A DNA stretch of 64,000 bases from Pseudoscleropodium purum (taxonomy: Eukaryota; Streptophyta; Bryopsida; Hypnales; Brachytheciaceae): positions 3,224,001-3,288,000 of the forward strand of contig OZ017804.1 in NCBI GenBank assembly GCA_963969395.1, given 5' to 3'. The notes under the pieces were generated by a model that saw only the letters and a list, made by a program, of their open reading frames with translations, did no database searches and was not told the origin of the DNA. The number at the start of each line of letters is the position of its first letter. The stretch's first letter is position 1. Positions 13,356 through 56,583 of this stretch are shown here, piece after piece. The translations under genes were made by a program, and so were the position numbers.

Positions 13356-15242
13356 TGAGATAAAAACATAATCTGACATCCAAAATCTCCTTCATCGCAC
13401 GGGAAGAAACCCACGCATACCTGATGTCAAATGGAATCCTTCATGACCACTTTCAACGCTTTTGCCAAAGCTTTCAATCCGTCCTGGATGGCTTGACACC
13501 CCCCACCCCACCCCCCCTCAATACACGGCAGTTCCTCTACCCAGAGGTATGCTCAGCGTGTTTTTCTTGGAACAGCAACTGCCACCAGCCTTCACAGCAC
13601 GGGAGCAAATCTGGAGGGACGTATGTTAACATCACTAGTCGGCAAATACAGACCAGTCGCAAATAAGCCGAACACCTTCACCTGTGCCACCAAAATTTTC
13701 AGTATCCGCTGCCCACTACCACCGATCCAAAATGACATCGCCCCCCCCACCCCGCTTCATAGCAACTCTCACTGGCAAATTCGATTTGCAATACTTTAAC
13801 ATCCTTTGCAGCTACTGTGTCTGCCAAATTATCCACATATGCATGGAAAACAAACTTCAATACCTCTAGCTACTGCTAGAACTTGCTAGCTACCTCGACA
13901 TGAAGGCATGCTGAACGGTCTGCCTGACATGAAGACCGTACAGCTGACATGAAGGCCAGATGAACTTCACTACCTCGCTCTCGCGCTCCACTGCTACTGC
14001 TCGCATCTCTTGCTCTTAGTCGGGGCAATAAAATTAATCCCCCCAATCCACGATCTCTGCATGTTACAAATGGCAGCTTTAGAATCCAACTGCTGCCATA
14101 CATTCCCGAAGTAGTGCAGTGGCACTTCCTAATGGATTCAATCTTCTCTCGAAAAATCTATAGCTTCGGAGCCTCCCCCTTCTTCACCTACAAGTACGAC
14201 CACAGCTCCTTCAGGCGAGGGCAACTAACGTTGGTGAAGCTCCGTCCTCGAATTTCGACTCTCTAAGTGGAATCAATGTGTCGTACAAAAACACATTTCC
14301 CACCATTGCTGCCACGAACGGTGCCGAAACCCGAACTCGTCGATGTCATCAACTCCGACCTTCACATTTCATCCTTCAATTCGCAACCTCGTCAATTAAT
14401 CGACTCTCACACTGCAATTAATTGCAAGAGAATTCCTCTTCTGCTCTTCTGCTCGAAACCTCTTCTGCTCGTCAAACAAGAGCAGACTCTTAAAGAATTC
14501 CTCAAAATTCGCCATCTCCAGTACTGAATCAAAGAGATGAAAAAAAATCCTGAAAATGTTCAGAAAAGAATCGATAAGGTTAATTTAAATCCTTCGGTGC
14601 ATGCATGGGGACGTCGCCCCGCAGACACGGGACTTCGCAAGGAAGAATCAGACAGGAACTGACAAACCCTAATTCTGGTGCCTCGCTGGGTATACGGGCG
14701 GTCCCCGTCATTGGCGGGTATCAGTAAGGGTTTCTTACTTTCAGCTCAGTTACCTGAACTGCGACGCTCAGACGGAGATTCAGTAGCTTGGACGGAGAGC
14801 AAACAGAACTAACAAGCGTAAGTGAACGGACAGGGGACGGACGGAGAGTGAACGGGCGGAGAAAACAGGGACAGAGAGCTAAGAGAAATGGACGGATGGG
14901 GGACGGACGAAGACGGACGGAGGTCAGAATCAGGTTCTCCTTCAGACAACATGGACAGAGAGTGGACGAACGGGATAACCTTCGCGACCTTTGAATATAC
15001 TTCAAGAGCGTGGGCGTGACTGGGGCTAGAGTAGAGCTTTTTTTCTTGTCTGTCTTCGTGGTTTGCGTTCTGTTTCTGACGTGTGTTGATAAGTGCGGGA
15101 GGATTCTGACATTTTTGAGGAATTTGGGTTCCAGAGAGGAAGTTCGTAGGACAGGAATTAGTAGCAAGGATTACAGTGTTTAGCCTAGGGTTTAAGGTTT
15201 GTCTTTCGGTTTGCATTCCTCAGGATTGCGGAGCTCTTGATT
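13356..15242 (+). promoter_or_regulatory. Upstream region of the RimP-like gene, no gene recognised
   Basis: A GC-richer stretch without a recognisable coding sequence. It ends in a telo-box-like AACCCTAA/TTAGGG-type word (CTAGGGTTTAAGG at about 15185-15197), common in plant housekeeping 5' regions. From about 14780 to 14960 it is a purine-rich degenerate run of GGACGGA/GGACAGA words. Likely holds the promoter and 5' untranslated region of the gene that starts at 15243, but the transcription start is not visible from sequence alone. Confidence 0.4.
14780..14965. repeat. Degenerate GGACGGA-type purine-rich minisatellite
   Basis: Many spaced copies of GGACGGA, GGACAGA and GGACGAA occur on the plus strand with irregular spacing. 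It lies about 280-460 bp upstream of the ATG at 15243, so it would be in the promoter or 5' untranslated region. Confidence 0.7.
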
Positions 15243-17825
15243 ATGAGAACACTCAGATTCTTTTCCTTTGGTCCGAGTTGTTCGTGTTGGACAGCGCCGT
15301 CGTCATACGTTGCATCGTCGCAGAGAGCATGCACGTCCGCATTTGCATTCGTTCCCGGCGTCCGGTTTCGAGAGCAAGCAGGAAGCCAGGGTTCTGCTGC
15401 TGAGGTGCGGTCAGGAGCTTCTGATGTCGAGAGATTGTGTGTGAGCTCTCTCCGGGAGTCTCCGACCACTATCTATGGTGGGTTTGGGGTGCCTGGCGGC
15501 TTAGGAAACTGCCAGAGGCGGCTGTACAGTCAAATTGCTAGCAAGAAAGGTAAAAAATCTGAGAAAGATGTGTTGGTAGAGGAACGAGAACCCGAGACGG
15601 TGGTCTTGTTGGTGGAGGACAGAGGAGAGGATGGCGTGGGGGAAGGTGAAATTGAAAAATTGGATGGGAAGAAGACGAAGAAGAAGAAGAAGGGAAAAGT
15701 GCCACCGGAGAATGGCGATGCCGTAGCAACGATGGATGATAGCGTGGCCAATGTGCATAGTGATGATGGTCCGGACGCTGAGCTGGTGACCAAATTGAAG
15801 AAGGAGAAAAGGAAGAAATCGAAGAGCAATCTAAAGCAGGAAGAAATTGAGACTGATCCTGGAATGGTGCTAAATGGTGCAAGCATTGCGGAGGAGATCC
15901 CGGAAACGACCTTACAACCTGAAGCGAAAGGAAAGAAGAAGCTGAAGAGCAAGAGCAAGCTCAGTGAATCTGAGGATCAGCTCCCGGAATCGGATCCTGA
16001 ATCTGAAAGTGGTAAGTTCCTCCTTCCATTTAAGGAATTATTTTGTATGGAGCAGGTACGCAGATGTGTACGAGGGAACTCTTCTTCGTATCTGCAGTTA
16101 TTTCTCACGTTGCGCTGGTATTCAAGCAGCTAATTTCGATTACTTGTTCGGATGCAGTTATAGAGGATTTTTTCGCCGCAGAATTAGAGGAACACCTGGA
16201 TGATGATGATTTCTGGGAAGATGATTTTGAGCCGGAAGCTGAGGTACGTTTCTTAGGATTTGTGAGGGTTATGTTCCACGAGATTCCGGGTAACAAAGAA
16301 GATGCTTTACTCACAAATCTTTCACTTTCCGCATGACATCTATTGACCCTGTTCCCTCTTGTTATTCTTTCTCCTCTATTTGAAATTACTGTTATGTCTC
16401 AAGTTTAGAAGCTTGATTTTGGAATATTTTCTTTAAAATTTTCCCTCTTCAGCTAAACGATGGAGGAGATGGAGGCGGTATAGTTCTTGGAGACGCTCCA
16501 TGGGCAAAGTCAGCGCTCGAGTTAGCGGAAAAGGTGGTGGTTGAATTTAACGGTGCCCTTGAAATCTTCGCTTTCAAAGTATCCAAAGACTCTGGCATCA
16601 TTCGGGTCCGAGTGGACAAGTTATCTGACAAGTATGTTACGTAGTTGTTTTTTGAAATTTGATATTAAATTGCATTTGAGTACCGATATGTGATACTAGG
16701 ACAGCAGTCCAAGGTTTTGTTTCAACGCAGACAAATGCTCAAAGAGAGTCTCGTTTCTTGCGCGTGTGTATGTAAGAACAAACCTATGTGTGTATATACT
16801 TTGCTTTTGCACATTCGTTCTTCCTTTCTTCTGCAATTGGAAGATCTCGGTAAAGCAACTGGATTTAATTTGTTGCAGATACGGTTCTCCATCAATGGAA
16901 GAGATTCAGAAATTCTCTTCATCATATTCAAAGCTCTTGGACAAAGCAGGAGAAGCAAATATTATCCCGGACGATTTAGCTTTGGAGGTAATGCATTTCC
17001 AACTCAATAGACGTTACTTGGGGAATTATTTTGATCGTTCGACACTTCTGCAAACTTTTATTCATTAGTGCTGCTTCGTTTGTGTTACATCTCGAACATT
17101 GGAAGCTGTCTCACGGATGATTGAATTCACGAAGTAGTGTTCAATCTTTAGGTTCATCTCCTCAGAAACTTGAACTCTTTAACTTTCCACCCAAGGCTTC
17201 TTGGCCAAATCCAGTTCATAGAGTCACTAATGTAGAGATTTTTCTTGCTACTGTTGGACTGCAAATTTCGAGTCCACGATAACGGCTTTCTTTCGAGACA
17301 TTGTATGGGCAATTCCGATGAACTCAACTGCTATGATGTGTCAAAAATTGGCCGAAAACACTTGTTGAGATGGGGTCGACGTTAGAGGGTTCATTGTTCG
17401 ACTCTTCTTCAAACTTACAGTCACTGGAACTCCTTCGGTTTGTGTTGTATCTAGCACATTGGAAGAGTCGTCACAAGATGTTTGAATCACGAAGGCTTGT
17501 TCAAATTTTTTAGGTTTCATCACCTGGAGCGGAGCGTGTAGTGCGACTTCCCCAAGACTTGGAACGATTCAAGGATCTGCCCATGTACGTGAGGTACATT
17601 GAGAGCTCAGGTGACAGTGGAGCAGAACCACCGGAGATGGATGGTGTAATGGAGCTGGAGTCGGTCGACATGGAGAGTGGATCTGCGAAATGGAAGCTCG
17701 CGGACGTTCGTTTAAATAGAGATTTAGCTGGGAAAGGTCGTGGACTGACGAGGAAACAAAAAGATTGGAGAGTCAACCTTCCATTCGAGACTATCCAGCT
17801 CGTTCGCTTGTACATCGATCTGTAA
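15243..17825 (+). CDS. RimP-like (UPF0090/DUF150) organellar ribosome maturation factor, 5 exons
   Basis: Exons as I read them: 15243-16011, 16158-16243, 16453-16631, 16879-16987, 17514-17825, giving 484 residues with consistent phases and GT-AG introns. Bacterial RimP assists late 30S maturation, and plant UPF0090 proteins are its organellar relatives. The RimP core is in the C-terminal part: APWAKSALELAEKVV at about residue 300, a YGSPSMEEIQKFS stretch near 346, and the hallmark LEVSSPGAERVVR spanning exons 4-5 (residue 380 on). The first 90-100 residues are Ser/Arg-rich and contain RRLYSQIA, typical of a mitochondrial presequence; plastid import is possible. Residues about 110-285 are a Lys/Glu-rich low-complexity linker ending in an acidic DDDDFWEDDFEPEAE run, longer than in bacterial RimP. 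The first ATG after an in-frame stop at 15186 is used; a TTG at 15237 is ignored. Exons are intact. Confidence 0.9.
17074..17163 (+). repeat. Upstream copy of the intron 4 acceptor region
   Basis: This 90-bp segment inside intron 4 (16988-17513) is a diverged direct duplicate of 17433-17525, which carries the real 3' splice site and the start of exon 5. Shared words include TTTGTGTT, ACATTGGAAG, TCACGAAG, TGTTCAA and TTTAGGTTTCATC/TTTAGGTTCATC. It therefore includes a copy of the polypyrimidine-TTTAG acceptor about 360 bp upstream of the real one. Confidence 0.75.
17433..17525 (+). repeat. Downstream copy containing the used acceptor of exon 5
   Basis: Contains TTTTTTAG at 17506-17513 followed by exon 5 starting GTTTCATCACCTGG, which encodes the VSSPG motif. 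The matching segment at 17074-17163 lacks the conserved coding continuation, so this is the functional copy. Confidence 0.75.
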
Positions 17826-18807: not shown

Positions 18808-19662
18808 CTAAATATTTAGAAATGGATCTTGAAGCAAGTCTGTTGCACTAGGTCGTTGTAGTGGATTTTGAGTTAAGCATTTTCTAATAAAAGATTGTAC
18901 TTCTAAATCTTTCACATATTTTAATACTAGAGGTTCTTTGCCTGCCAAGATATTTATAAAAATTTCAGCTTGAGTTCTACATTCTCTATATGGATATTCT
19001 CTCGTAATCATCTGCAAAATACACATGCCAAAAGCATATATATCCACTTTTTCATCATAGCTTCCATGAAGCATTTCTGGTGCAAGAAATTCTAATGTTC
19101 CAAAAAGTGCATCTGGTTTTTTGTCTCGCATAGCGGTAGAATAGCCCATATCTCCAATTTTCACTTCTCCAGTGTTTCCGTTGATGAAAATATGATCACA
19201 TTTGAGGTTACGGTGAAGTATTACTGGACTTTGAGTGTGAAGATAGATCAATCCATCAAGAATTTGGCGTGCCCATCTTTTCATTGCACTAATTGTTACA
19301 TATTTAGTATGAAGCTTGCAATAATTAAATAGAGATCCAGATAGAAAAGTCTCAGTAATAATGTAGATGGTCTTGGTGTCTTGATGTGTCCAAAAATGTT
19401 TGCACCCAACAACATTTTTGTGACGTAAAGTTCGTAGCATATCCACTTCAATTCTCATTTGATCTACTTCAAATAAACTTGACATACTATCTATATGAAA
19501 TTCATGCCACTCCACCTCAATTCCCAAGTTTCCATCAAAACCTCTATATACAACTTTATTGGGACCTCTTCTTAAAACCTCTCCATGATGACTATAATGT
19601 AGTTGGGGACCCATTTTCAAAAAGTCTTTAGAAGAAACAATATAACTCTTAGATTCCTCCAT
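18808..19662 (-). CDS. WNK-family kinase-like protein, predicted pseudokinase, intronless
   Basis: One frame of 284 residues with the ATG at 19662; an open frame continues upstream without another ATG. The closest family is WNK (with-no-lysine) Ser/Thr kinases: a VVYRGFD segment follows K36 in the glycine-rich loop, where WNKs carry their ATP lysine; the usual beta-3 lysine is absent (GIEVEWHEF); E72 fits the helix C glutamate; IGDMG (D171) stands for DFG; APE is at 194-196 and RPSA at 270-273. The catalytic loop reads HRNLKCDHIF instead of HRDLKCDNIF, so the catalytic Asp (N152) and the Mg-binding Asn (H157) are both replaced. The glycine loop is also altered (VLRRGPNK). The protein stops right after the kinase domain, with none of the long C-terminal tail of most WNKs, and lacks the introns usual in plant WNK genes. 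The frame is undamaged, which favours a maintained scaffold-like product over a dead gene. Codon use is AT-rich, unlike the flanking genes. Confidence 0.85.
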   Translation of the reverse strand: MEESKSYIVSSKDFLKMGPQLHYSHHGEVLRRGPNKVVYRGFDGNLGIEVEWHEFHIDSMSSLFEVDQMRIEVDMLRTLRHKNVVGCKHFWTHQDTKTIYIITETFLSGSLFNYCKLHTKYVTISAMKRWARQILDGLIYLHTQSPVILHRNLKCDHIFINGNTGEVKIGDMGYSTAMRDKKPDALFGTLEFLAPEMLHGSYDEKVDIYAFGMCILQMITREYPYRECRTQAEIFINILAGKEPLVLKYVKDLEVQSFIRKCLTQNPLQRPSATDLLQDPFLNI

Positions 19663-19803: not shown

Positions 19804-19862
19804 ATGAAATACTATAATACAATTGAATTGTTTTTGCTATAAATAGCTAGTGAATAAAAGAA

Positions 19863-20036
19863 AAGAAAAAGATTAATGATAACGCAAAAGAAAAAATTAA
19901 TGACAAAGTAAAAGAGAAAGATCAATGACAAAGTAAAAGAGAAAGATCAATGACAAAGTAAAAGAGAAAGATCAATGACAAAGTAAAAGAGAAAGATTGA
20001 TGATAAAATAAAAGAGAAAGATTAATGATAAAGAAA
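19863..20036. repeat. 25-bp minisatellite, about 7 units
   Basis: The unit ACAAAGTAAAAGAGAAAGATC plus AATG recurs with an exact 25-bp period (for example at 19921, 19946 and 19971); central units are identical and outer units are diverged (ATTGATGATAAAA, ATTAATGATAAAG). It lies 200-375 bp upstream of the kinase-like ATG, so it sits in its promoter or 5' untranslated region. Confidence 0.9.
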
Positions 20037-22631
20037 AATACAAAATAAAAACCTTAGTAGTATAGCATTTGTGTGAAAAGCATCTTATATGTAGATAAGA
20101 TAATACTTGTACAAATTTCATAGCTACTACAAGACTCTTCCATTTCAATTATATATGAATAACAATATTATACATTAATGGATTTTATACATTTTTCATT
20201 ATAAAAGATTTGCAGTCTTTTTCAAATTCTAGGTCTCATCAAAGTTCTTTGGATTATTAGTCCTTAACTCTAAAGCACTCCAACATTTAATTTTCTAGAC
20301 AATGAACAAAAAATTAGGATTTTTTTCATTATTGCTTGGATGAAAGTCATCTAATTTGTGGAGATACTTTATCAAGTTTTTTTTCATCTAATAATTGGAT
20401 TTTGTGTTACTAGAGTTCTTATTTTTCTAAAATTACAAATACGGAAGTGTGTCAAGCTAAAAGTTGCATTGATTTTAGTTCAAACTAGATTTGCAAAAAT
20501 GAGGTGATAGATTTAAAGAACATAAAAATTTCAAAAAATCACCCTATCATGAGAAATTCATTTTAAATATATTCCAACAATTATTTTACTCAAAAATTAT
20601 AATATTTTGCTTGTAATTGAATTTAAAAGAAATTTTCAAAATTTATAAAAAAAATATTGGTAATAGCATTGGTGAACCTAACTATATGGATGGAATCTAA
20701 AACTAAAAATCTACAACTTTTATTTGTATATGTATTTCAAAATATTCCTCCAAATATTATTTCATAACAATTTTTTCCAAATCATGTTAACTATTTTTAG
20801 AGAAGGATCTTGACAGTTAGGGATTAAAAGACATTTCATGTTTGGGCTTGGTCAAACTTCATTAAATTTCTACACTAGAACACACATTTGAAGGTTTTCA
20901 TATTTTTTGCACGAGGTAATACATATATTAAATGTAATCTCATTTTTTCATAATTAGAAACATTATTTTCGATTTTATATGAGTTTAAAAAAAATCTTTG
21001 CAAAAATTATATGGAATAGTAATTATAAAAATGCTTTAAATAATAAGAGATTTTTAAGAAAAATAGAAATAATAGTGAAAAAGATCACGGTGTAATTGAT
21101 ATAGTCCTTAAGCTTATACTAAGAGAAGTTTGATTAAAAAAGAAGTTTAAAAGTGGTGTATTTTGAACTTTGAAGATGCTATCTTCAAAATGTTATAAAA
21201 ATGATAATTTTAATCATTTTGAAAAAAGTGCATTATTGGGGCTTTATTTTTTTTAATAAAGCTTTAAAACATTTAAAATTAAAAAACTATGAGAAAATTT
21301 AGGATTTGATTTTCAAAATGCTTATGCAGCTTGCAATGTCCTTTAAGGGTTAAATCAATTGCTTTTAATAGAGTATTGATAATGATTATAAACCAATTGA
21401 GAATAAACCAATTGAGAATAAACCAATTAATAATTTATAATATTCTTGAACATTTAGAAGGAAGTAATCTTATGTACTCTTGTTTGGCTATTTGAATGAT
21501 GGAGAGAATACTAAAGATGGCTAGAAATTTTGACAAAGGTGTAGAATGAAATTTTGTTCTTAGGGAGGATGAAAAATTTTACTTATGGTTACATATTGTG
21601 TTCAATAAGCTACAACTTTTTAGCTATTTAGGAAGGTAATTTGTATCCTAGTTTGTATATAGAGACTATGACCTCTTTGTTTAAAATAGAATGAAAAGAC
21701 AATCAACAAATTGTGGTTTTGCAATTGAACTAAATCTTCAATCATCAAATGAGATATCATTATGCACAACAAAAGATTTTGCTTTAAAGATAATAAATTT
21801 TTTATTGAAAATATTAAGATTCAACTTAGTCATTGACTAATCCCTACATTGATTTATCCTATTACAAAATTCATATCACCTACTAAATAGTGTTACTATA
21901 AAATATTTATTTTATGGAAATTTGTATTTCAAGTTGTTCTAATTTAAAATAGTGCAACTTTGATAAACCAATATCAAACACATAAATCAAACAAGCTTCC
22001 CACAAAGAATGTAGATAAATTGTGTGAAACCCAAAGTGTGAATTCAACCAATTCAAGTGTACATTATTCACAAACACATGGAGTAAACTCCACTCTCGGA
22101 GTCAAAAAGAACGTTGTATTCAACCACTGATGTAAAGGGTAACCCTTTCAACACTAGTCTAAATCCCTTCTTGAATTTTTGCAGATATGTACATACACTT
22201 TTGGGGCAAAGCTCCAGGTTCATCATCCTATGGACTTTGGAGCACTTGAGGGTGTAAGAAACCCACAATTTGACATGCAAGATTTTCTGAATTGTCCACC
22301 AGCTCAGCAGCTCTCATATTATCAAAAGGACACCAGATGATCCGCTGAATTTGCACCAATCAAGGGTGCGAAACACAGTAATGGATTGGTGAGTTGATTG
22401 CATGAGGAATTTTAGAGCATCAAGACGACAAAACCACTTAAAAAAAGATAAACAATACAAAAGTGACAGTGGTTTGCCTGGACTAACTGGAATTTGACTG
22501 AACTGGTGACTCTGCAAACACAAGGATGGGCAAATAATCAATGCATAGGTCGATCGGTGAACGCGCAAGGCGGAGAATCTGTCAAGAAACAGCCAAGGTA
22601 AGAAGAGGGCAATTCAGAGAGTGGCGCTTGT
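20037..22631. other. Intergenic AT-rich DNA; 3' flank of SWC5 at the right end
   Basis: No gene recognised from 20037 to about 22000. From about 22050 to 22631 the composition becomes more balanced; this is downstream of the SWC5 stop codon on the minus strand and probably includes its 3' untranslated region. A small triplicated AACCAATTGAGAATA word occurs at about 21391-21430. Confidence 0.45.
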
Positions 22632-24765
22632 TTAGTTCAATGGGGTCGTTTCAGACCGCTGCTTGGATTGAAGAGCAAGGCGAGCATCCCTCTCTTTCTC
22701 ATACTCCCGTACATCAGAACGTTGGAGGAAGGCAACTTTATCCAGATACTTGTCCCCGCTTTTCTTGTAAGCCTCAAGCTCATCTTCTAATCCCTTCTCT
22801 TCTTTAAACTGCCCCCAATCCTTTCTACTTCTATCCAAAATGTTGGGCTTCTGCTTTTTACTAATCTGCTGCAAGAGGCTATCCAATCCTGATGACGAGG
22901 AGGCCTGCATCTCTGACTTTCGTCTCAATGCTTGGGCACCCTTAGAATCGTCAGATGCCTTAGAAATTGAGGTAGTGGTGGTATCAGCTCCTTCTCTTAG
23001 CCTACTGAGCACCTCCTTAACCTGCGAGGCAAGTGTGCATGATAAGCTTAATACCGTGCAAAGAGATCAAGGGATCTGATGAAGCTGCGTTCCCTTCCAT
23101 AGAAACCCTAACACCATAAAATACAGCAAAGTAAGCACTAGAGTAGCCAAAACCAGCAGCGTGAGCAAAGCCCATCCGTCACTCGCATCACAACCACTTG
23201 AATAACAGAAGCAGTAACAAGGACATGAAGTTCCCACTTCATCCCTAAAAGCAGAAAAACGGAACCTTCTCATAACTACTGAACATCCAAACACTTTCTC
23301 CTTGCCAGCTCGTACGTGCTCCACTGGTCAGACGTGACCCTAAATTCTATCTATACGTGTTGCAAGTAAATCATTTAGGAAGCTCAAAGTCAAGAAATGA
23401 ACCAACAGCAAGAAGAAATCGTACCCTATATGTTTGAAGAGTAGAAAGTTGTTCTGAAAGTTAACACAATCATCAACTATAAGCTTTCCAAAGGGAATCC
23501 TATTTTCTAGAACGGGTACTGAGAAGTTAACACATGTCAAAATAGTAGCTAGCGTAATATTAACCTGCAAAATATTTGCACGTTCCATACAGTATGTTGC
23601 TTCAGCACAATGTCGGCCCCTGAGAAGGTATCATATGAAGGAAGTGAGACTTACTTTTAAATCCGATAAAGGAGCAGTACGACTTTCCTTTGCTTCCGCT
23701 TGGGCTTGATCAACAATAACCTGACTATCCTTAAGAACACCGTTGCCAGCGTTCCCGCTTGTTAGCTTCGGTAGTTTCTCCCCGTTTACCTGCCCTGGCT
23801 TTTGAATCGCTGATCCCTTTGCTGGTACAAGTCCGAGACTTACCATCCAACTCTGCACAGCCATTTCCCATCTAAGCACGAACTTCTAACCAAATGGGTG
23901 TTCACAAAGTAGAAACAAACATGAATTCGATAGGTGTTGGAACTTGCAAAGCTTACCGGCACAGATTTGGATGGTTTGTTGGGCTTTGAGACCTTCTGCA
24001 CTTTGGGCAAGCCCACCTTGGCTGGTAAGGAGTCTTTTCCTTTGAGCTCCTCCCAGATGGAATTAATCTTCGCTCTCATTGCTGCCCTTTCATCTACATT
24101 GAAAATCACACATTCAGCGTCAGGAAGTACGAACACTCAAAAAACTGTAGCTAGTTTATTACAAAGTGGAAGAAAATTGCGGTAATCTAGGCCCAAACCA
24201 AGCAATCTCTCTTGCAACATGACCAAACATTTCACAATTGACTGCTGACATATTGGCAGTTCATACCAGCACCAATCCACACTCAAATCACCATATAGGA
24301 CCAATTTGATAAACTAGGGTTTGCTGAGACACCCAATCTAATCTCGTTCTTCACCCGATATCCAGTTTTCTCCGCACTGCTGAGGCATATCCCACACGCT
24401 CACCACCAAGATTCCAACAACGGAAAGAAAAAAGCCACGAAACAACGAAGAACAAGAAAAAAAATCACAGAGTGCCACATAGGAACTCATTTGATCAAAC
24501 TAGGGTTTGCTAGAAAACAAGCGTAATCTAGCGCTCCAACTGATCAATCCCCACCACTTTTCGCACTGCGAACGTGCACTCCAACCAAAACTACACCCTA
24601 CCCACCGAAATCACAACAACACCAAAAAAACGCAACCATAATATGAACAAACACGGAAAAGGATGAGCAGAGCACACCGCTGCTATGATTCTCACTCGTA
24701 CTATTCGTGCCTTCCGGTTTCAAAGACACATCGCCATCTCCGTTCCGCTCGGCCGAGTCCGCCAT
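22632..24765 (-). CDS. SWC5: SWC5/BCNT (CFDP1) subunit of the SWR1 chromatin-remodelling complex, 4 exons
   Basis: Exons on the minus strand: about 24765-24678, 24093-23957, 23852-23655, 23021-22632, giving about 270 residues. SWC5 is the BCNT-family subunit of SWR1, which exchanges H2A for H2A.Z in nucleosomes; it acts in the nucleus. The C-terminal BCNT-C domain (about residues 186-256) is nearly canonical: LDSLLQQISKKQKPNILD, then SRKDWGQFKEEKGLEDELE, then YKKSGDKYLDKVAFLQRSD and REYEKERDARLA. The N-terminal helix ERAAMRAKINSIWEELKG (about residues 31-48) fits the conserved BCNT N-terminal segment. Residues between are Lys/Ser/Pro-rich. The ATG at 24765 has a strong context (GCGGCCATGGCG) and is the first ATG in frame. 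The donor of exon 1 is uncertain: I used GTGTGC after 24678 for phase; GTGAGA after 24696 is an alternative with the same phase. Introns 2 and 3 have clean GTAAGC/GTAAGT donors. Confidence 0.93.
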
Positions 24766-30079: not shown

Positions 30080-32060
30080 GGAAAAAAAAATTAGGTTTTA
30101 CTTGAATAGTACTAATATGAGTGACAATTGTGTATTAGAGGAAGGCAACAATGGAGAAGAGGGGAGTTGGTAAAATTATAGAAGCTGGGAAAGTAGTTTG
30201 TCAAACTTTGTAGAAAAAAATGATGATTACGGAGACAATGAAAACACTACATTATTTGAATGGATGGAACGTGAAGCTAATAAACACACATTCCTCAAAA
30301 TGCTAGAACACAAAGACTTTGAAGATAATGATGCACCCCCATTAGATAGCTCATCGCAGTCTATAGCGTCGACCTAAAAAAGTAGTTAGTTGTAGTGCGA
30401 CCCTACAAGACTGCAATACATGGAACAGATGACAACAAAGGATGACAACCTCAACCTTCATAGGCAAAGTCAAAGTCGGTAGACTTGTTAGAGGATACAG
30501 TTGGAGTACTACAATGAAGGAGTGTTGCCTAGACAAGACGCCACATCCTTGCCGTATCAAAGTAGCGGAATCTTTGGGTGGAATCAATAGACGTTATATG
30601 GAGGATTGGGAAGAGGTCATGGTTGAGTTAACTGTTTTAGGAAAAGACATCTTGAATTAGAATTTAGAAAATGTCAAGCCCTAGACTAGAAAAGAGTTAG
30701 GAGTCTATATCTTAAAAGTGTAGCATTATTTTATGGTAATCTACAAAAGCTATACAATACACACAATTACCAACCTCACCAAATTTGGAATTGTGATGAG
30801 AGTGGTGCTTAGTTTGGAAGAGATGGAGGAAATTATGTTATAGCAAAAAGGGGTTGGAGGAATGTACACTTGGTTATTTTTTATTAGAGGGAGTGGATTT
30901 TTGTACTCTCTTATATAAATGCTAAGGGAGAACACACATCAAACTTTTATATAATCAAAGGTTAGAAGAAAAGTGAAAAATTCCTTAAACATACAAGAGA
31001 GGCTGGAGTTGTCATGGCCATGCAATCTAAGACCTAGATGATAAACTATTTATTCAAGGCCTAGATGTGTCACTTTCTTTTTAATCTGGGTTCTTCATAT
31101 GATATTTCTCCAACTTACAGGCATTTATTTATATTAGATGGTCACAAATTCCATGTTACAATGGATGTGATAAAACTTGTTATGTCAAGAGGCTTGGATT
31201 TGTTGACTTTTCTATCCCATACATCCCATGTGGTGCAACCATTTGATGTCAGTTGTTTCAAACCTTTAAACTCTAATTTTGTGCTTACAGAGATAAATAG
31301 ACTCTAAGTCACAAGGGTAAGCTACCTACAAAAGAAGACTTAGCCCAATGGATCTAACATGCTCTACAAAGAGCATTGAGTAGTCAAAACATTACGAAAG
31401 GTTTCTCAACTATAGGTTTCTATCCATTGAATTTATATGCTATGGATTCAAAATGGGCCCTAGTAAAGCTTACAAGCAAATAGCAATAGAAGTAAATACA
31501 TCAACTATGGAAGGAAGTGAATGTGATGTTGAAGAAATGACGACATTAGGCATTGGTAGACTGGGAAATACAAGAGATATTTGATGAAGTTCCTCCTTAT
31601 TTGCCTAATTGCCATCAATAGTACATGAATATTGATGGTGAAGAGGACAATGGTCATGTCAACAACAGTGGTTCTAAAACATTGAGTTCTGGAAAGGAGG
31701 GAACTGATGATCAACAAATAGATGGCCAGGATGCAGTAGATGATCAACAACGACAAGTCAAAAACCATACTTTCAAGGAATTACCAGAACTTTCAATAAT
31801 AGAGGTACTGGTCATCTCAAAGACATGCACCAAACTATGGGTCGAATACCACAATTCTATCCTACTCATAGAAAAAAAATAATATATTTAGCAATTGGAG
31901 CATGTGGTAGCTAGGAAGGAAGAAGCTCCAAAAGAAAAAGAGAGGAAGCAATTAGAGAAGCAAGAATAAGAAGCATAGGAGAAGAGAAACAAAATTGAAG
32001 CAAAAAAAGCTAAGAGTTGAACTAGCTTTATAAAAAAAGAAGCATAAGGAGTTGTAGAGC
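30080..32060 (+). pseudogene. Decayed pogo/Tigger-like DDE_1 transposase
   Basis: Several frames contain DDE_1-superfamily motifs in the right order: IWNCDESGA followed by GRDGGNYVIAKRG (about 30780-30870, first catalytic Asp region), then the frame at 31065-31307 with HLFILDGHKFHV (second Asp), LLTFLSHTSHVVQPFDVS and CFKPL, then LSSQNITKGF and TIGFYPLNLYAMD (about 31370-31450), the usual C-terminal motif of these enzymes. A Lys/Glu-rich coiled-coil-like tail follows (about 31900-32060). Many stops and frameshifts separate the motifs, so the copy is dead. No terminal repeats were found. pogo-type transposases act on TA targets, so a relative could mobilise the TA-flanked TIR families here, which is only inference. 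Confidence 0.75.
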
Positions 32061-49346: not shown

Positions 49347-51619
49347 GCTAACATGTTAAAAAACTGCTTCATTTTGATGATGCTTCAATAATGTAAAATA
49401 AAAAGTTGATTACGACATTCATAAAATTTATTTGAAAACAAAGTTTTATAAAATGTCAGATGTGGACATTCTGCACAAGGAATGGAGGCCAAATCACTTT
49501 TGAAAAAAGATAAATTATTTGGATATGATGGAATGATAGGCATAGATAAACGAAAGTATGGTATTTTACATAATCTTAAAGATAGTGGAATTATTAAATC
49601 TTTTGTCTTGGCATTATGTTTTATAAAAAAACAAAATTTAGATGAAGCAGTTGGATTTATCATCTTTGGAAAACCTTTGTTTCTTCCACATATGACAAAA
49701 CATTTGAAATGGACTAAAATGATACCATCAAGGTATTTATTTATTCTTTCAATTATTAATGTGAATATAATATTATTGTACGAAATCTAATATATGATTT
49801 TTTTAATATTGAAATTTTCAAACTAGTTTCTTTTTATGGTTGTAGTGATAGCAATTTATTTGGAAATGTAATAAAAGTGGGTGAAATAAAAATGGGAAAT
49901 TTGAATACCAAATATGAATTTCCAAATATTAAGTATATGCATTTTGAAATTGATACTGGTACATCAGGAATATATATTCCAAAAGATTTGTGCAAAAAGA
50001 TTCATGACAGGGTAACTATGCAATGCCTACAATTGATCATCTATAAGTTTCATCTTAAATATTTATTAATGGATCCATATCTAATGTGCAATTAAAATCA
50101 ATAAAATATTTTTAAGATGAGCTTAAAAACATGTTGTGAAACATTTTTTTATCAATGAAATTTTTTATTTTTCCAAATAATATTTGCAAAGTCTTATATA
50201 AAAAATTTTAATAATAAAAATTATATTTAATAAATTTATATAAATTTTCTTTGAAGCCCATCCTAAAAAATGAAGTTAGTAAAATTTAATACAATATAGA
50301 CATTGACTTTTACAGTACATTCAACATTGTGTTTTTAAGAGAAGCATATAATTTTTATGAAAACAAAAATAAAATGCATAGTTTTTGTACTTTTCCATTA
50401 TAATAAAATTTGATATAATTCTATTTTCAAAATGAAGTAGAATTTCACTTCTATAATTAATTTTTAACTTGTATTTAACAATTAAATTTTACAATTTGAA
50501 ATTTTGAATCTATTAGAAATGTTGTAATGAAATGTGTGTTCATGTCTTGAATTGTCATCAAATGTTTGACATGCAACAACTAAATGAATTCCAATAGATT
50601 AAAATCATAGGTAGGAAAAAGAAATATCAAGAAGATCCAATGATAAAGCCTGGAAAAACATGTCTAAGATTTCTACCAAAGTATGTTTCTAATAAATATC
50701 TTCTTCCACTTTGTAAACTTCAAGTGAATATAATAAATATAATAAATATATTTAACATTTGAATCAAAATATAAAATAATAAAAGACAAAAGACAAATCA
50801 AATCAATTTGATGTAAACCAGTGGTGCAGATCCTCAGCTAGATTTTGAAATTTTACATATTGGTATTTTTGGCTTGAATGGATTCCATTATTTATCAATA
50901 TGGCCAGATCAATATCTTCGATGGAAGGTATTTTATAAATCTAATGCCTACTATTAAGGTTTTATAGTTTTTGATATTTATATAAACATCTTCTATCATT
51001 GGATATATACTATGATCATAAAGTTGTCTAATAATTCTATGTCTTCAATAAACATTAAAATAATGAATAAAAATTCAAAATTTTCTTACATCAACATTAT
51101 GTGAACTATAATTTATAATCAAATGTTCAATAATATTTTATGAACCTTATACAAAATTAAAATGACTAACTAATAGTTAAACATTTGTAATAATATGTAT
51201 GGGTTGAAAAAAATTAACATTTTTAGCAATTTTTGATTTTGTGGTCATTTTCAGGGTTTAAGTGACAAAAATGGACACTATTTATGTACAAATATCTATG
51301 AGGAAGATCATATTAAGGATTATCCTTATTATTTCGGGCTTTTGGGTGGTAAAATATTATTTGAAGTTTTATTTGTATTTCAAGTATTGACTTTTATTTA
51401 TTTTTAAATGTTTGATCATATTTATAACTAACTCATTTGGAATGATGTTTGCAATAAATAATAGCAGAAGCAATACAAAATACACTTGTTGTCTTTGACT
51501 ATGAAAATGAAATAATTGGGTGGAAGTCAAGTACATGTAATGAAGTACAAAGAGAATTGAGTATCATTGAACAAAGCATGAATCCTCATCCTTATAAAAG
51601 ACCAAAATATAATCCATAG

Positions 51620-53019: not shown

Positions 53020-53600
53020 GACTTACCAGGTCCAAGTTCTTGCTTTTTTCCTTGAGTTCTTCTCTTGGGCTTCATCTCACGAGCTCCAATTTATCACCTT
53101 CAACATCAAGAAGATCCTTGCTCTCTCTCTTTCACCCAAAAATACATTGGATACTCGGACACAAAGCTTTTCCTGAAATCAGCTGGCAGACCTCGATCTC
53201 GCCCTCGATGTACAATCTTTGACAACGCAAGCGTTTTGTCACTTGACATCAGAGGAAGCTTCCGCAGCTTGATGACGACCTCGGCGTCCATCCCCATCTG
53301 TATTGCTAATTCTTCATCAAAAACTGCTTCAATTCTGCCTTGGGTGTGAATTGAAACCAAGGAAACTGGCCGAATTCCGCAGTCTCGGGGACTCGAAACA
53401 CAGACGGATGCCGTTTCAAGAATAAGACAAGGCGTCCATCGCCCTTGAATCCTATGTCGTCCTTGCGCTTCCGTAGCTCCAGGCAGCAGAGTCATGCATC
53501 GGCTTGGCTCGGCCCCAAGATGGTCCTTGAATCCCAAAACGATTCTAAGCTTCTTTTGCATGCTTTGGTATTTCCACTTCAATTTGTCAAACTTGATTTT
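53020..53600 (-). pseudogene. PORR-domain (plant organelle RNA recognition) pseudogene
   Basis: PORR proteins bind group II introns and other RNAs in plastids and mitochondria. On the minus strand the domain can be followed across frames: LELRKRKDDIGFKGDG, RLVLFLKRHPSVFRVPE, PWFQFTPKAELKQF, then in the frame running to 53106 EEVVIKLRKLPLMSS-like text (seen as AEVVIKLRKLPLMSSDKTLA), LSKIVHRGRDRGLPADF, RKSFVSEYPMYFWVKE, then in another frame DVEGDKLELVR followed by TGA. At least three frame changes and one stop are needed, so the copy is dead although some segments are well preserved. The N-terminal part is not recognised. It is GC-richer than its surroundings, as in functional genes of this window. 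Confidence 0.8.
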
Positions 53601-55165: not shown

Positions 55166-56583
55166 ATGTCTAGGTTGAAGATCCCAATCATGGCCTTGGA
55201 GCCTAGTCTTTGGGGAACTTTGCCCAAAGAGCTCTTGGACCTTGTGTTTGCTCATCTTCCTGGAGTTGGAATTGGTCAACTTCGAGTTCTTTCAAAGGAA
55301 TGGAAGAAGAATGTGGATTGTAAAGACTCAAAGTTCAGTCAAGTCTTTGATACAAGAACTCATCTCAACATGTTTGGTCTTCTACTTTGGAGAAATTTTT
55401 GGAAGTTCGGATACAACTATGATGTGCTAACAAATAAATGTCATTTTTATGAAATGGATGGAGTACTTTACAAGGTTGAAACCTTGGATGGAGTAGATGG
55501 GGGACTAGTGTGCTTTGTTTCATCATGGCTATGGCATGATAACAAACCTAAAGTTTGCTATGTGATGAATCCTTTAACAAAACAAAAGATGCATCTCCCT
55601 TTGTTGATGTGTATGGGGGCCCGAAAATCCAATACTTAACCAACAATAGTAAGGATGGTGAAGCTTACTATGGACATGAAAACCAAGAATTATAAAATTT
55701 TTGTTTTGACTTCCATAATACCTAGTGGAGGAGGTTTCTTTGCCCAAGTCTATCACTCCCAAATCAAAAAGTGGATGGTTGTGGAAGCAACACATGGTCA
55801 CATCATTAGGAGGAATTATTTAGATAGTTGAAATTGGAAGGGGGACATTCTATTTGACTACGACCTTTGTGTGTACAATTGTGAAGATGGAACACTACAA
55901 TATATCTCTAGAATTGATATTGCACTAGGATTCGATGTAAAAGCAAGTTGTTCTTTCTTCATAAAAGACCATCTATTTGTGTTGCACAAAGAGGCATCTC
56001 TAGGCCTTGTGGATCTATTGGAGGATGGTGAGAGTACACTACCAAAGTATTGCATATCTGAGTTTCATCTCCCAAAGAAGGCAACCACTTGCAGGGTTGA
56101 CAAATCAGTACGTCCGCCCCAAAATAGCGCCCGGACGTCTGTCCTCACGGACGCCAGCGGATGCATCGTCCCTCCCGCCGTTGGAAGGCGGACGGGCGGG
56201 GTGGGCAGGGGTGGACGGGGCAGTCTTGGCGGACGCTGCGTCCGTCAGGACCGCGAATTTCAACGGAAGCTGCGGACACAACATCTGCGTCCGGACGTCC
56301 CGGACGTCTGACCGTCCTGTCAACCCTGACCACTTGGGTGAAATTGAAAGTGAACAATTGTAGCTTTTATAAGAGCTTCCTTAGAAAACCACCTAGTATT
56401 ATTGATTTGAGACTTATGGGTTGCCAAGGGTTTTTACTTGTATATGGTGTTGGTTGTAAGCTTGCTTGGCTCTACAATTTGTCAACTTATGAGTGGCACA
56501 ACCTTCCAACCTTTGATCGAGCCTTTCAGAAGTTTGAGGACCCTAAAATGATGTGCACAATTAGTTGGAGTTCTATGGCTTAG
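55166..56583 (+). pseudogene. F-box protein gene, disrupted by stops and a hAT MITE
   Basis: F-box proteins select substrates for SCF ubiquitin ligases. From the ATG at 55166 the first 157 residues are open: an F-box at about residues 11-53 (LWGTLPKELLDLVFAHLPG, then LRVLSKEWKKNV), followed by a MNPLTKQKMHLPLL segment typical of plant F-box C-terminal repeats. A TAA at about 55637 replaces the Leu codon seen in the paralogue (NT-stop-PTIV against NTLVIV); a TGA follows at about 55828. Downstream, frames continue with VYNCEDGTLQYISRIDIALG, DHLFVLHKEASLGLVDLL and, after the MITE at 56092-56328, WVKLKV and SIIDLRLMGCQGFLL, ending at 56583. The insert plus its 8-bp duplication shifts the frame by two. 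A truncated product with an intact F-box but no substrate-binding part could still be made. Confidence 0.8.
56092..56328. mobile_element. hAT-type MITE, 237 bp, GC-rich
   Basis: Begins CAGGGTTGACA and ends TGTCAACCCTG, a perfect 11-bp terminal inverted repeat starting with CAGGG as in many hAT elements. The sequence ACCACTTG flanks it on both sides (56084-56091 and 56329-56336), a perfect 8-bp target duplication, which is the hAT hallmark. The F-box paralogue at about 60187 reads ACTACTTGGGTGAAATTGG without the insert, the empty site. The interior is much richer in GC than the host and repeats the palindromic word GGACGTC near both ends, likely subterminal repeats. It has no transposase and would need one in trans. 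Confidence 0.95.

What the first reader, a model, noticed from the sequence alone, without database searches (positions are those of the whole stretch)
18808..19662. WNK-like protein that has lost the catalytic Asp and the Mg-binding Asn but keeps an open frame
The catalytic loop reads HRNLKCDHIF where active WNKs have HRDLKCDNIF: D to N at residue 152 (codon at 19209-19207, AAC) and N to H at 157. The glycine-rich loop is also degraded (VLRRGPNK), yet the WNK-type Lys (K36), the helix C Glu, the DMG Asp, APE and the fold-defining residues remain and the 284-codon frame has no lesion. That pattern suggests a retained pseudokinase that might bind and regulate true WNK or other partners.
Basis: partly seen in the sequence, partly recalled or inferred. 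Interest (0 to 1): 0.75.

Follow-up and report, generated by a model that had tools for sequence, protein, structure and literature searches.

The report
Moss-type WNK kinase with broken catalysis
A plant gene for a small WNK-type protein kinase keeps an intact reading frame and kinase fold but has lost residues needed for catalysis, and it belongs to a fast-changing, apparently moss-lineage group in which other members have lost catalytic residues too.

Summary
Window 18808-19662 (-) is one intact 284-codon frame whose product is WNK-like by sequence, tree and fold. It reads HRNLKCDHIF: Asn152 replaces the catalytic Asp, His157 the Mg-binding Asn. The best-scoring relatives are two proteins of unnamed origin (P0002, P0003); two proteins of the moss Physcomitrium patens (P0052, P0196) join them in trees (100/99, with a long-branch warning) and share DMG-[F/I/Y]. 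N152 occurs in 1 of these 4 (P0003) and H157 in 0 of 4, so the catalytic losses are not a conserved trait. Protein-level constraint is clear along the window's branch (changes at 12 of 81 near-invariant sites against 79 of 139 others) but cannot be dated to after the loss. Best reading: a kinase-domain-only WNK subfamily, apparently of mosses, with more than one member losing catalytic residues, this one being a retained pseudokinase. The rival, a gene in early decay, is not excluded. WNK-related pseudokinases are known in animals (NRBP1). The window's genome could not be searched; neither dN/dS nor expression could be tested.

The parts
18808..19662 (-). Intact 284-codon WNK-like frame in one exon (protein P0001)
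19570..19572 (-). Residue 31: first P-loop Gly replaced by Arg
   Evidence: Gly in P0002, P0003, P0052 and in 43 of 44 other WNKs (the other has a gap)
19555..19557 (-). Residue 36: WNK-type Lys in the glycine-rich strand, retained
   Evidence: Lys in 43 of 44 others (one gap)
19510..19512 (-).
   Evidence: Ala in 44 of 44 others; A, A, S in P0002, P0003, P0052. The role of this Ala is general kinase knowledge, recalled
19504..19506 (-). Residue 53: His at the beta-3 Lys position (Asn in most plant WNKs), so still 'no lysine'
   Evidence: Asn in 40, Ser in 3, Cys in 1 of 44 others
19447..19449 (-). Residue 72: helix C Glu, retained
   Evidence: Glu in 44 of 44 others
19207..19209 (-). Residue 152: catalytic Asp replaced by Asn (AAC)
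   Evidence: Asp in 44 of 44 others and in P0002 and P0052; Asn also in P0003; Asp in P0196
19192..19194 (-). Residue 157: Mg-binding Asn replaced by His (CAT)
   Evidence: Asn in 44 of 44 others and in P0002, P0003, P0052; deleted in P0196
19141..19152 (-). Residues 171-174 DMGY: Asp retained, chloride-site leucines (DLGL) changed
   Evidence: M172 in P0001, P0002, P0003, P0052; position 174 is Y, I, F, F; of 44 others 42 have L and 2 have F at each position. Chloride role of WNK1 L369 and L371; the match of 172 and 174 to L369 and L371 is made by the motif
19093..19095 (-). Residue 190: Pro of the GTPEF motif replaced by Leu
   Evidence: Leu also in P0002; Pro in P0003, P0052 and 43 of 44 others (one gap)
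19857..20038 (.). 25-base minisatellite, 7.4 copies, 195-376 bases upstream of the ATG
   Evidence: no function tested

Best explanation
The gene encodes a small, kinase-domain-only, WNK-derived pseudokinase of an apparently moss-lineage WNK subfamily. Shown by computation: WNK-type sequence and fold, a tree clade with two Physcomitrium patens proteins and two proteins of unnamed source, loss of the HRD Asp and Mg-binding Asn, change of the chloride-site motif, and protein-level constraint along its branch. Inferred: that the domain no longer transfers phosphate (at best it binds nucleotide weakly), and that what is kept is the folded surface, with which it would pair with or compete against active WNK kinase domains or their substrates, in the way proposed for NRBP1 and WNK1. 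Inferred from DMGY: it would not respond to chloride as an active WNK does.
For: Frame intact and non-random. WNK by PDB sequence search and fold, kinase by Pfam (model mean pLDDT 88.9). Clade support: 96/90 for four members in a 48-row tree; 100/99 for five members in a 28-row tree; 100/100 for P0001+P0002+P0003 in a 26-row tree without the two long-branched P. patens rows. Active-site changes R31, E51, N152, H157. At the 220 scored sites where P0002 and P0003 agree, P0001 differs at 91: 12 of 81 sites that are at least 95% conserved in the 44 other WNKs, and 79 of 139 other sites; in 0 of 20,000 permutations was mean conservation at the changed sites as low. If all 91 changes had been neutral, about 8 stops would be expected, P(no stop) 0.0003. 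D152N also occurs in P0003.
Against: The degraded residues are not conserved in the clade (N152 in 1 of 4, H157 in 0 of 4). P0002 and P0052 keep HRD and Asn157. P0001 departs at 16 of 88 near-invariant sites, against 6 in P0002 and 8 in P0003, and P0052 at 19 of 81. Active-site sites are not significantly enriched among the changes: 4 of 12 against 12 of 76, Fisher p = 0.22. Thirty neutral replacements would still leave no stop with P 0.07; with an assumed rate of 0.1 small indels per substitution an intact frame has P 0.14 after 10 and 0.002 after 30. So a recent loss of function is possible. The tree program warned that long branches meet (P0001 with P0052 and one more). No expression or dN/dS data.
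Confidence: 0.55

Rival explanations
1. Gene in early decay: a lineage-specific WNK copy, perhaps a retrocopy because its kinase domain has no intron, lost catalysis and is drifting without function; the frame is open only because too little time has passed.
For: Long branch: 1.18 to 2.21 changes per column against 0.13 to 0.34 for P0002 and P0003. 16 of 88 near-invariant sites changed. Catalytic losses not shared as a set by relatives. Both P. patens members look degraded: P0052 has Lys for the helix C Glu and the APE Glu, and P0196 lacks Asn157 and shows no recognisable P-loop in the alignment, though these may be gene-model errors. Thirty neutral replacements are compatible with no stop at P 0.07.
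Against: Changes on the branch strongly avoid near-invariant sites, and the codon-position GC pattern is kept (0 of 593 control segments as strong), so much of the branch was under constraint.
Confidence: 0.33
2. An unusual but active kinase: it keeps K36, E72 and D171 and phosphorylates by a non-canonical route, as weak activity was reported for HER3, which also has Asn in place of the catalytic Asp.
For: K36, E72, D171 and APE retained. HER3 with Asn at the catalytic position binds ATP and autophosphorylates in vitro when immobilised on vesicles (PMC4718504, passages).
Against: HER3 keeps the Mg-binding Asn (Asn820), which is His here; Glu51 and Arg31 also alter the nucleotide pocket.
Confidence: 0.08
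3. Sequencing or assembly error at the catalytic codons.
For: No reads could be inspected.
Against: Four separate active-site codons are changed (31, 51, 152, 157), the frame is intact, and D152N also occurs in P0003.
Confidence: 0.04

Closest known systems
Plant WNK kinases (for example Arabidopsis P0144 and P0169; Selaginella P0083)
   Same: 46, 47 and 46% identity over 95 to 96% of the window protein, Lys in the glycine-rich strand, no beta-3 Lys
   Different: HRD Asp and Mg-binding Asn lost, DLGL changed to DMGY, no C-terminal region or PF12202 domain
Short P. patens WNK-like proteins P0052 and P0196 and unnamed proteins P0002 and P0003
   Same: One clade in the trees; DMG-[F/I/Y]; one extra residue after the KL[H/Y] motif, absent from the three outgroup WNKs of alignment A4
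   Different: P0002 and P0052 keep HRD and Asn157; P0003 has D to N only; P0196 lacks Asn157 by deletion. P0052 is only 42% identical to the window protein, no closer by identity than ordinary WNKs
Animal NRBP1 and NRBP2 (WNK-related pseudokinases)
   Same: WNK-related kinase domain without the HRD motif; works-like candidate because NRBP1 associates with WNK1, its knockdown inhibits WNK1 activation, and recombinant NRBP1 activates WNK4 in vitro (PMC12266122, abstract and passages)
   Different: NRBP1 lacks VAIK, HRD and DFG motifs and has a CCT domain; this protein keeps the DFG-type Asp and has no CCT
HER3/ErbB3 pseudokinase
   Same: Asn in place of the catalytic Asp (PMC4718504, passages)
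   Different: HER3 keeps the Mg-binding Asn and the beta-3 Lys, lacks the helix C Glu, and is a receptor tyrosine kinase

Membership tests
WNK family (by descent) | Kinase domain closest to WNKs in sequence, tree and fold | tested here: met
   the trees held WNK-like rows only, so the closeness to WNKs rests on the sequence and fold searches
WNK family (by descent) | No Lys at the beta-3 position; Lys in the glycine-rich strand instead | tested here: met
   His53 and Lys36
WNK family (active kinases) | HRD catalytic Asp and Mg-binding Asn | tested here: not met
   Asn152 and His157
WNK family (active kinases) | DLGL chloride-site leucines | tested here: not met
   DMGY; 42 of 44 other WNKs have Leu at each position
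WNK family (active kinases) | C-terminal CCT-like domain (PF12202) in longer members | tested here: not met
   Not in P0001 at E 0.001. tblastn of P0083 and P0144 at E 1 found the kinase frame and one 22-residue match at 50021-50086 (E 0.57), nothing else. Not strictly defining: P0019, P0021, P0022 and P0023 (291 to 323 residues) carry no PF12202 either
Pseudokinase (bioinformatic definition) | Lacks at least one of VAIK Lys, HRD Asp, DFG Asp | tested here: met
   HRD Asp lost; definition from PMC4718504 passages. WNKs lack the VAIK Lys by nature, so only the HRD loss counts
Pseudokinase (functional) | No phosphotransfer | not testable with these tools
   needs protein
NRBP family | CCT domain and loss of VAIK, HRD and DFG | tested here: not met
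   D171 retained, no CCT
Retained functional gene | dN/dS below 1 with orthologues; transcript | not tested
   No relative's DNA and no transcript data available; proxies only

The most novel reading that the evidence does not exclude
Mosses carry their own WNK-derived pseudokinase subfamily in which catalytic residues were lost repeatedly while the fold was kept. That would be an independent counterpart of the animal WNK-NRBP1 pair: a stand-alone pseudokinase domain without CCT that tunes active WNKs in a plant lineage exposed to strong osmotic swings.
Probability: 0.2. Interest if true: 0.7.

Novelty: new variant of a known kind. Interest (0 to 1): 0.42.

Why it matters
If the gene is functional, plants would have evolved a WNK-derived pseudokinase separately from animals, and mosses, including the genetically tractable P. 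patens, would offer a system for asking what a WNK fold does without catalysis or chloride sensing. If it is decaying, the subfamily still shows how catalytic residues erode in lineage-specific kinase copies.

Tried and rejected
Active-site enrichment among the window protein's changes was tested and not found (4 of 12 against 12 of 76, p = 0.22). Loss of the activation-loop Ser was considered and dropped: of 44 other WNKs 24 have Ser, 7 Thr, 10 His and 3 Arg there, so it is not diagnostic (residue 185).

Whether D152N in P0001 and P0003 is one event or two could not be settled. P0002+P0003 as sisters has support 75/35 and 85/93; P0001+P0003 held together is not rejected (p-AU 0.242), nor is P0001+P0002 (0.373). 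Residue counts (51 derived states shared by P0002+P0003, 6 by P0001+P0003, 7 by P0001+P0002) lean to two events but are biased by the long P0001 branch. The place of P0001 within the clade is also unsettled: with P0002 and P0003 at 91/91, with the P. patens pair at 56/26.

Literature: the listings (20 of 121 papers shown; 20 of 24; 8 of 8; 0; 20 of 33; 13 of 13; 10 of 21) show no title or abstract start that names a moss or plant WNK pseudokinase; only the held open-access library was searched. Opened by passages: PMC12266122 (with abstract), PMC13397483, PMC4718504, PMC5353636, PMC9532615, PMC3019232. In the passages shown, the last three mention WNKs only for comparison, in a kinase list or in references.

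Full report
WHAT IS THERE. The minus strand of 18808-19662 holds a single uninterrupted frame of 284 codons, starting at the first in-frame ATG at 19662. It covers the kinase domain in one exon (Pfam Pkinase, residues 38-282, profile 15-263 of 263). Residue 152 is AAC (Asn) and residue 157 CAT (His), so the catalytic loop reads HRNLKCDHIF as reported. The frame is not chance: 284 codons against a maximum of 182 for the longest ATG frame in 100 random windows, and a codon-position GC contrast that 0 of 593 control segments reach. Neighbouring frames carry BCNT, PORR and DUF7912 domains. PORR is described as a plant organelle RNA recognition domain, so I take the window to be plant nuclear DNA.

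WHAT IS LOST. Against 44 other WNKs the window protein changes Gly31 to Arg, Ala51 to Glu, Asp152 to Asn, Asn157 to His, Leu172 to Met, Leu174 to Tyr and Pro190 to Leu; it keeps Gly33, Lys36, Glu72, His150, Arg151, Asp171, Gly173 and the APE motif. WNK1 L369F is a chloride-insensitive mutant and the chloride site lies at L369 and L371 (PMC13397483, passages), so DMGY predicts loss of chloride response (inference). There is no C-terminal region and no PF12202 domain. Among 295 retrieved proteins, 5 have Asn for the HRD Asp (P0001, P0003, P0026, P0073, P0075), 287 have Asp and 3 could not be aligned there. That sample consists of relatives of the queries and is biased.

IS IT MAINTAINED? At the 220 scored sites where P0002 and P0003 agree, P0001 differs at 91, but at only 12 of the 81 sites that are at least 95% conserved in the other WNKs, against 79 of the other 139; in 0 of 20,000 permutations was mean conservation at the changed sites as low. 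If all 91 changes were neutral, about 8 stop codons would be expected and the chance of none is 0.0003; for 30 neutral changes it is 0.07, and 0.002 with an assumed indel rate. So much of the branch was under protein-level constraint, but a late phase of drift is not excluded. Against maintenance: the protein departs at 16 of 88 near-invariant sites (P0002 6, P0003 8, P0052 19 of 81), and the catalytic losses are not a shared trait. N152 is in 1 of 4 relatives and H157 in 0 of 4; P0002 and P0052 keep HRD and Asn157; P0196 lacks Asn157 by deletion; P0052 lacks the helix C Glu. Whether N152 in P0001 and P0003 arose once or twice is open.

HOW IT MIGHT WORK. In animals the WNK-related pseudokinase NRBP1 lacks the VAIK, HRD and DFG motifs, associates with WNK1 and is needed for its normal activation, and recombinant NRBP1 activates WNK4 in vitro; modelling and co-immunoprecipitation suggest that its pseudokinase domain can pair with the WNK1 kinase domain (PMC12266122, abstract and passages). 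The window protein could do the domain pairing but not the CCT-based part, because it has no CCT. I rate a retained pseudokinase at 0.55 and early decay at 0.33. The partner and the effect are inference.

VERDICT. Correct observation, partly supported interpretation. It is a new variant of a known kind: a plant, apparently moss-lineage, WNK-derived pseudokinase in a small, fast-changing clade.

Noticed in passing
proteins P0065 (Impatiens), P0067 (Camellia), P0070 (Rhododendron), P0073 (Actinidia), P0038 (Daucus), and P0031, P0033, P0035 (unnamed); WNK-like proteins in which the DFG Asp position reads A, Y, G, N, G, G, G, G. P0065, P0067 and P0070 read HGDL and P0073 HGNL in place of HRDL. They look like a second, separate set of WNK pseudokinases in flowering plants.
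   Followed up: partly
protein P0026 (Handroanthus impetiginosus, named MEKK): Another WNK-like protein with Asn for the catalytic Asp; the other six active-site positions checked are intact.
   Followed up: no
window 19857-20038: 25-base minisatellite of 7.4 copies just upstream of the frame; possible promoter variation, untested.
   Followed up: no
window 22632-23012 (-): BCNT domain (E 3.5e-26), an exon of a craniofacial-development-type protein.
   Followed up: no
window 53106-53582 (-): Partial PORR domain (E 4.6e-14, profile positions 78-151 of 326); the rest of the gene was not looked for.
   Followed up: no
window 55166-56583 (+): F-box-like frame (E 5.8e-4, 20.1 bits against a cut-off of 20.5) followed by frames that change register; by eye an interrupted F-box gene.
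   Followed up: no
window 17541-17825 (+): DUF7912 domain (E 1.4e-35), perhaps the end of a multi-exon gene that begins near 15237.
   Followed up: no
window 31065-31307 (+): Short frame that resembles a DDE-type transposase by eye; no search was made.
   Followed up: no
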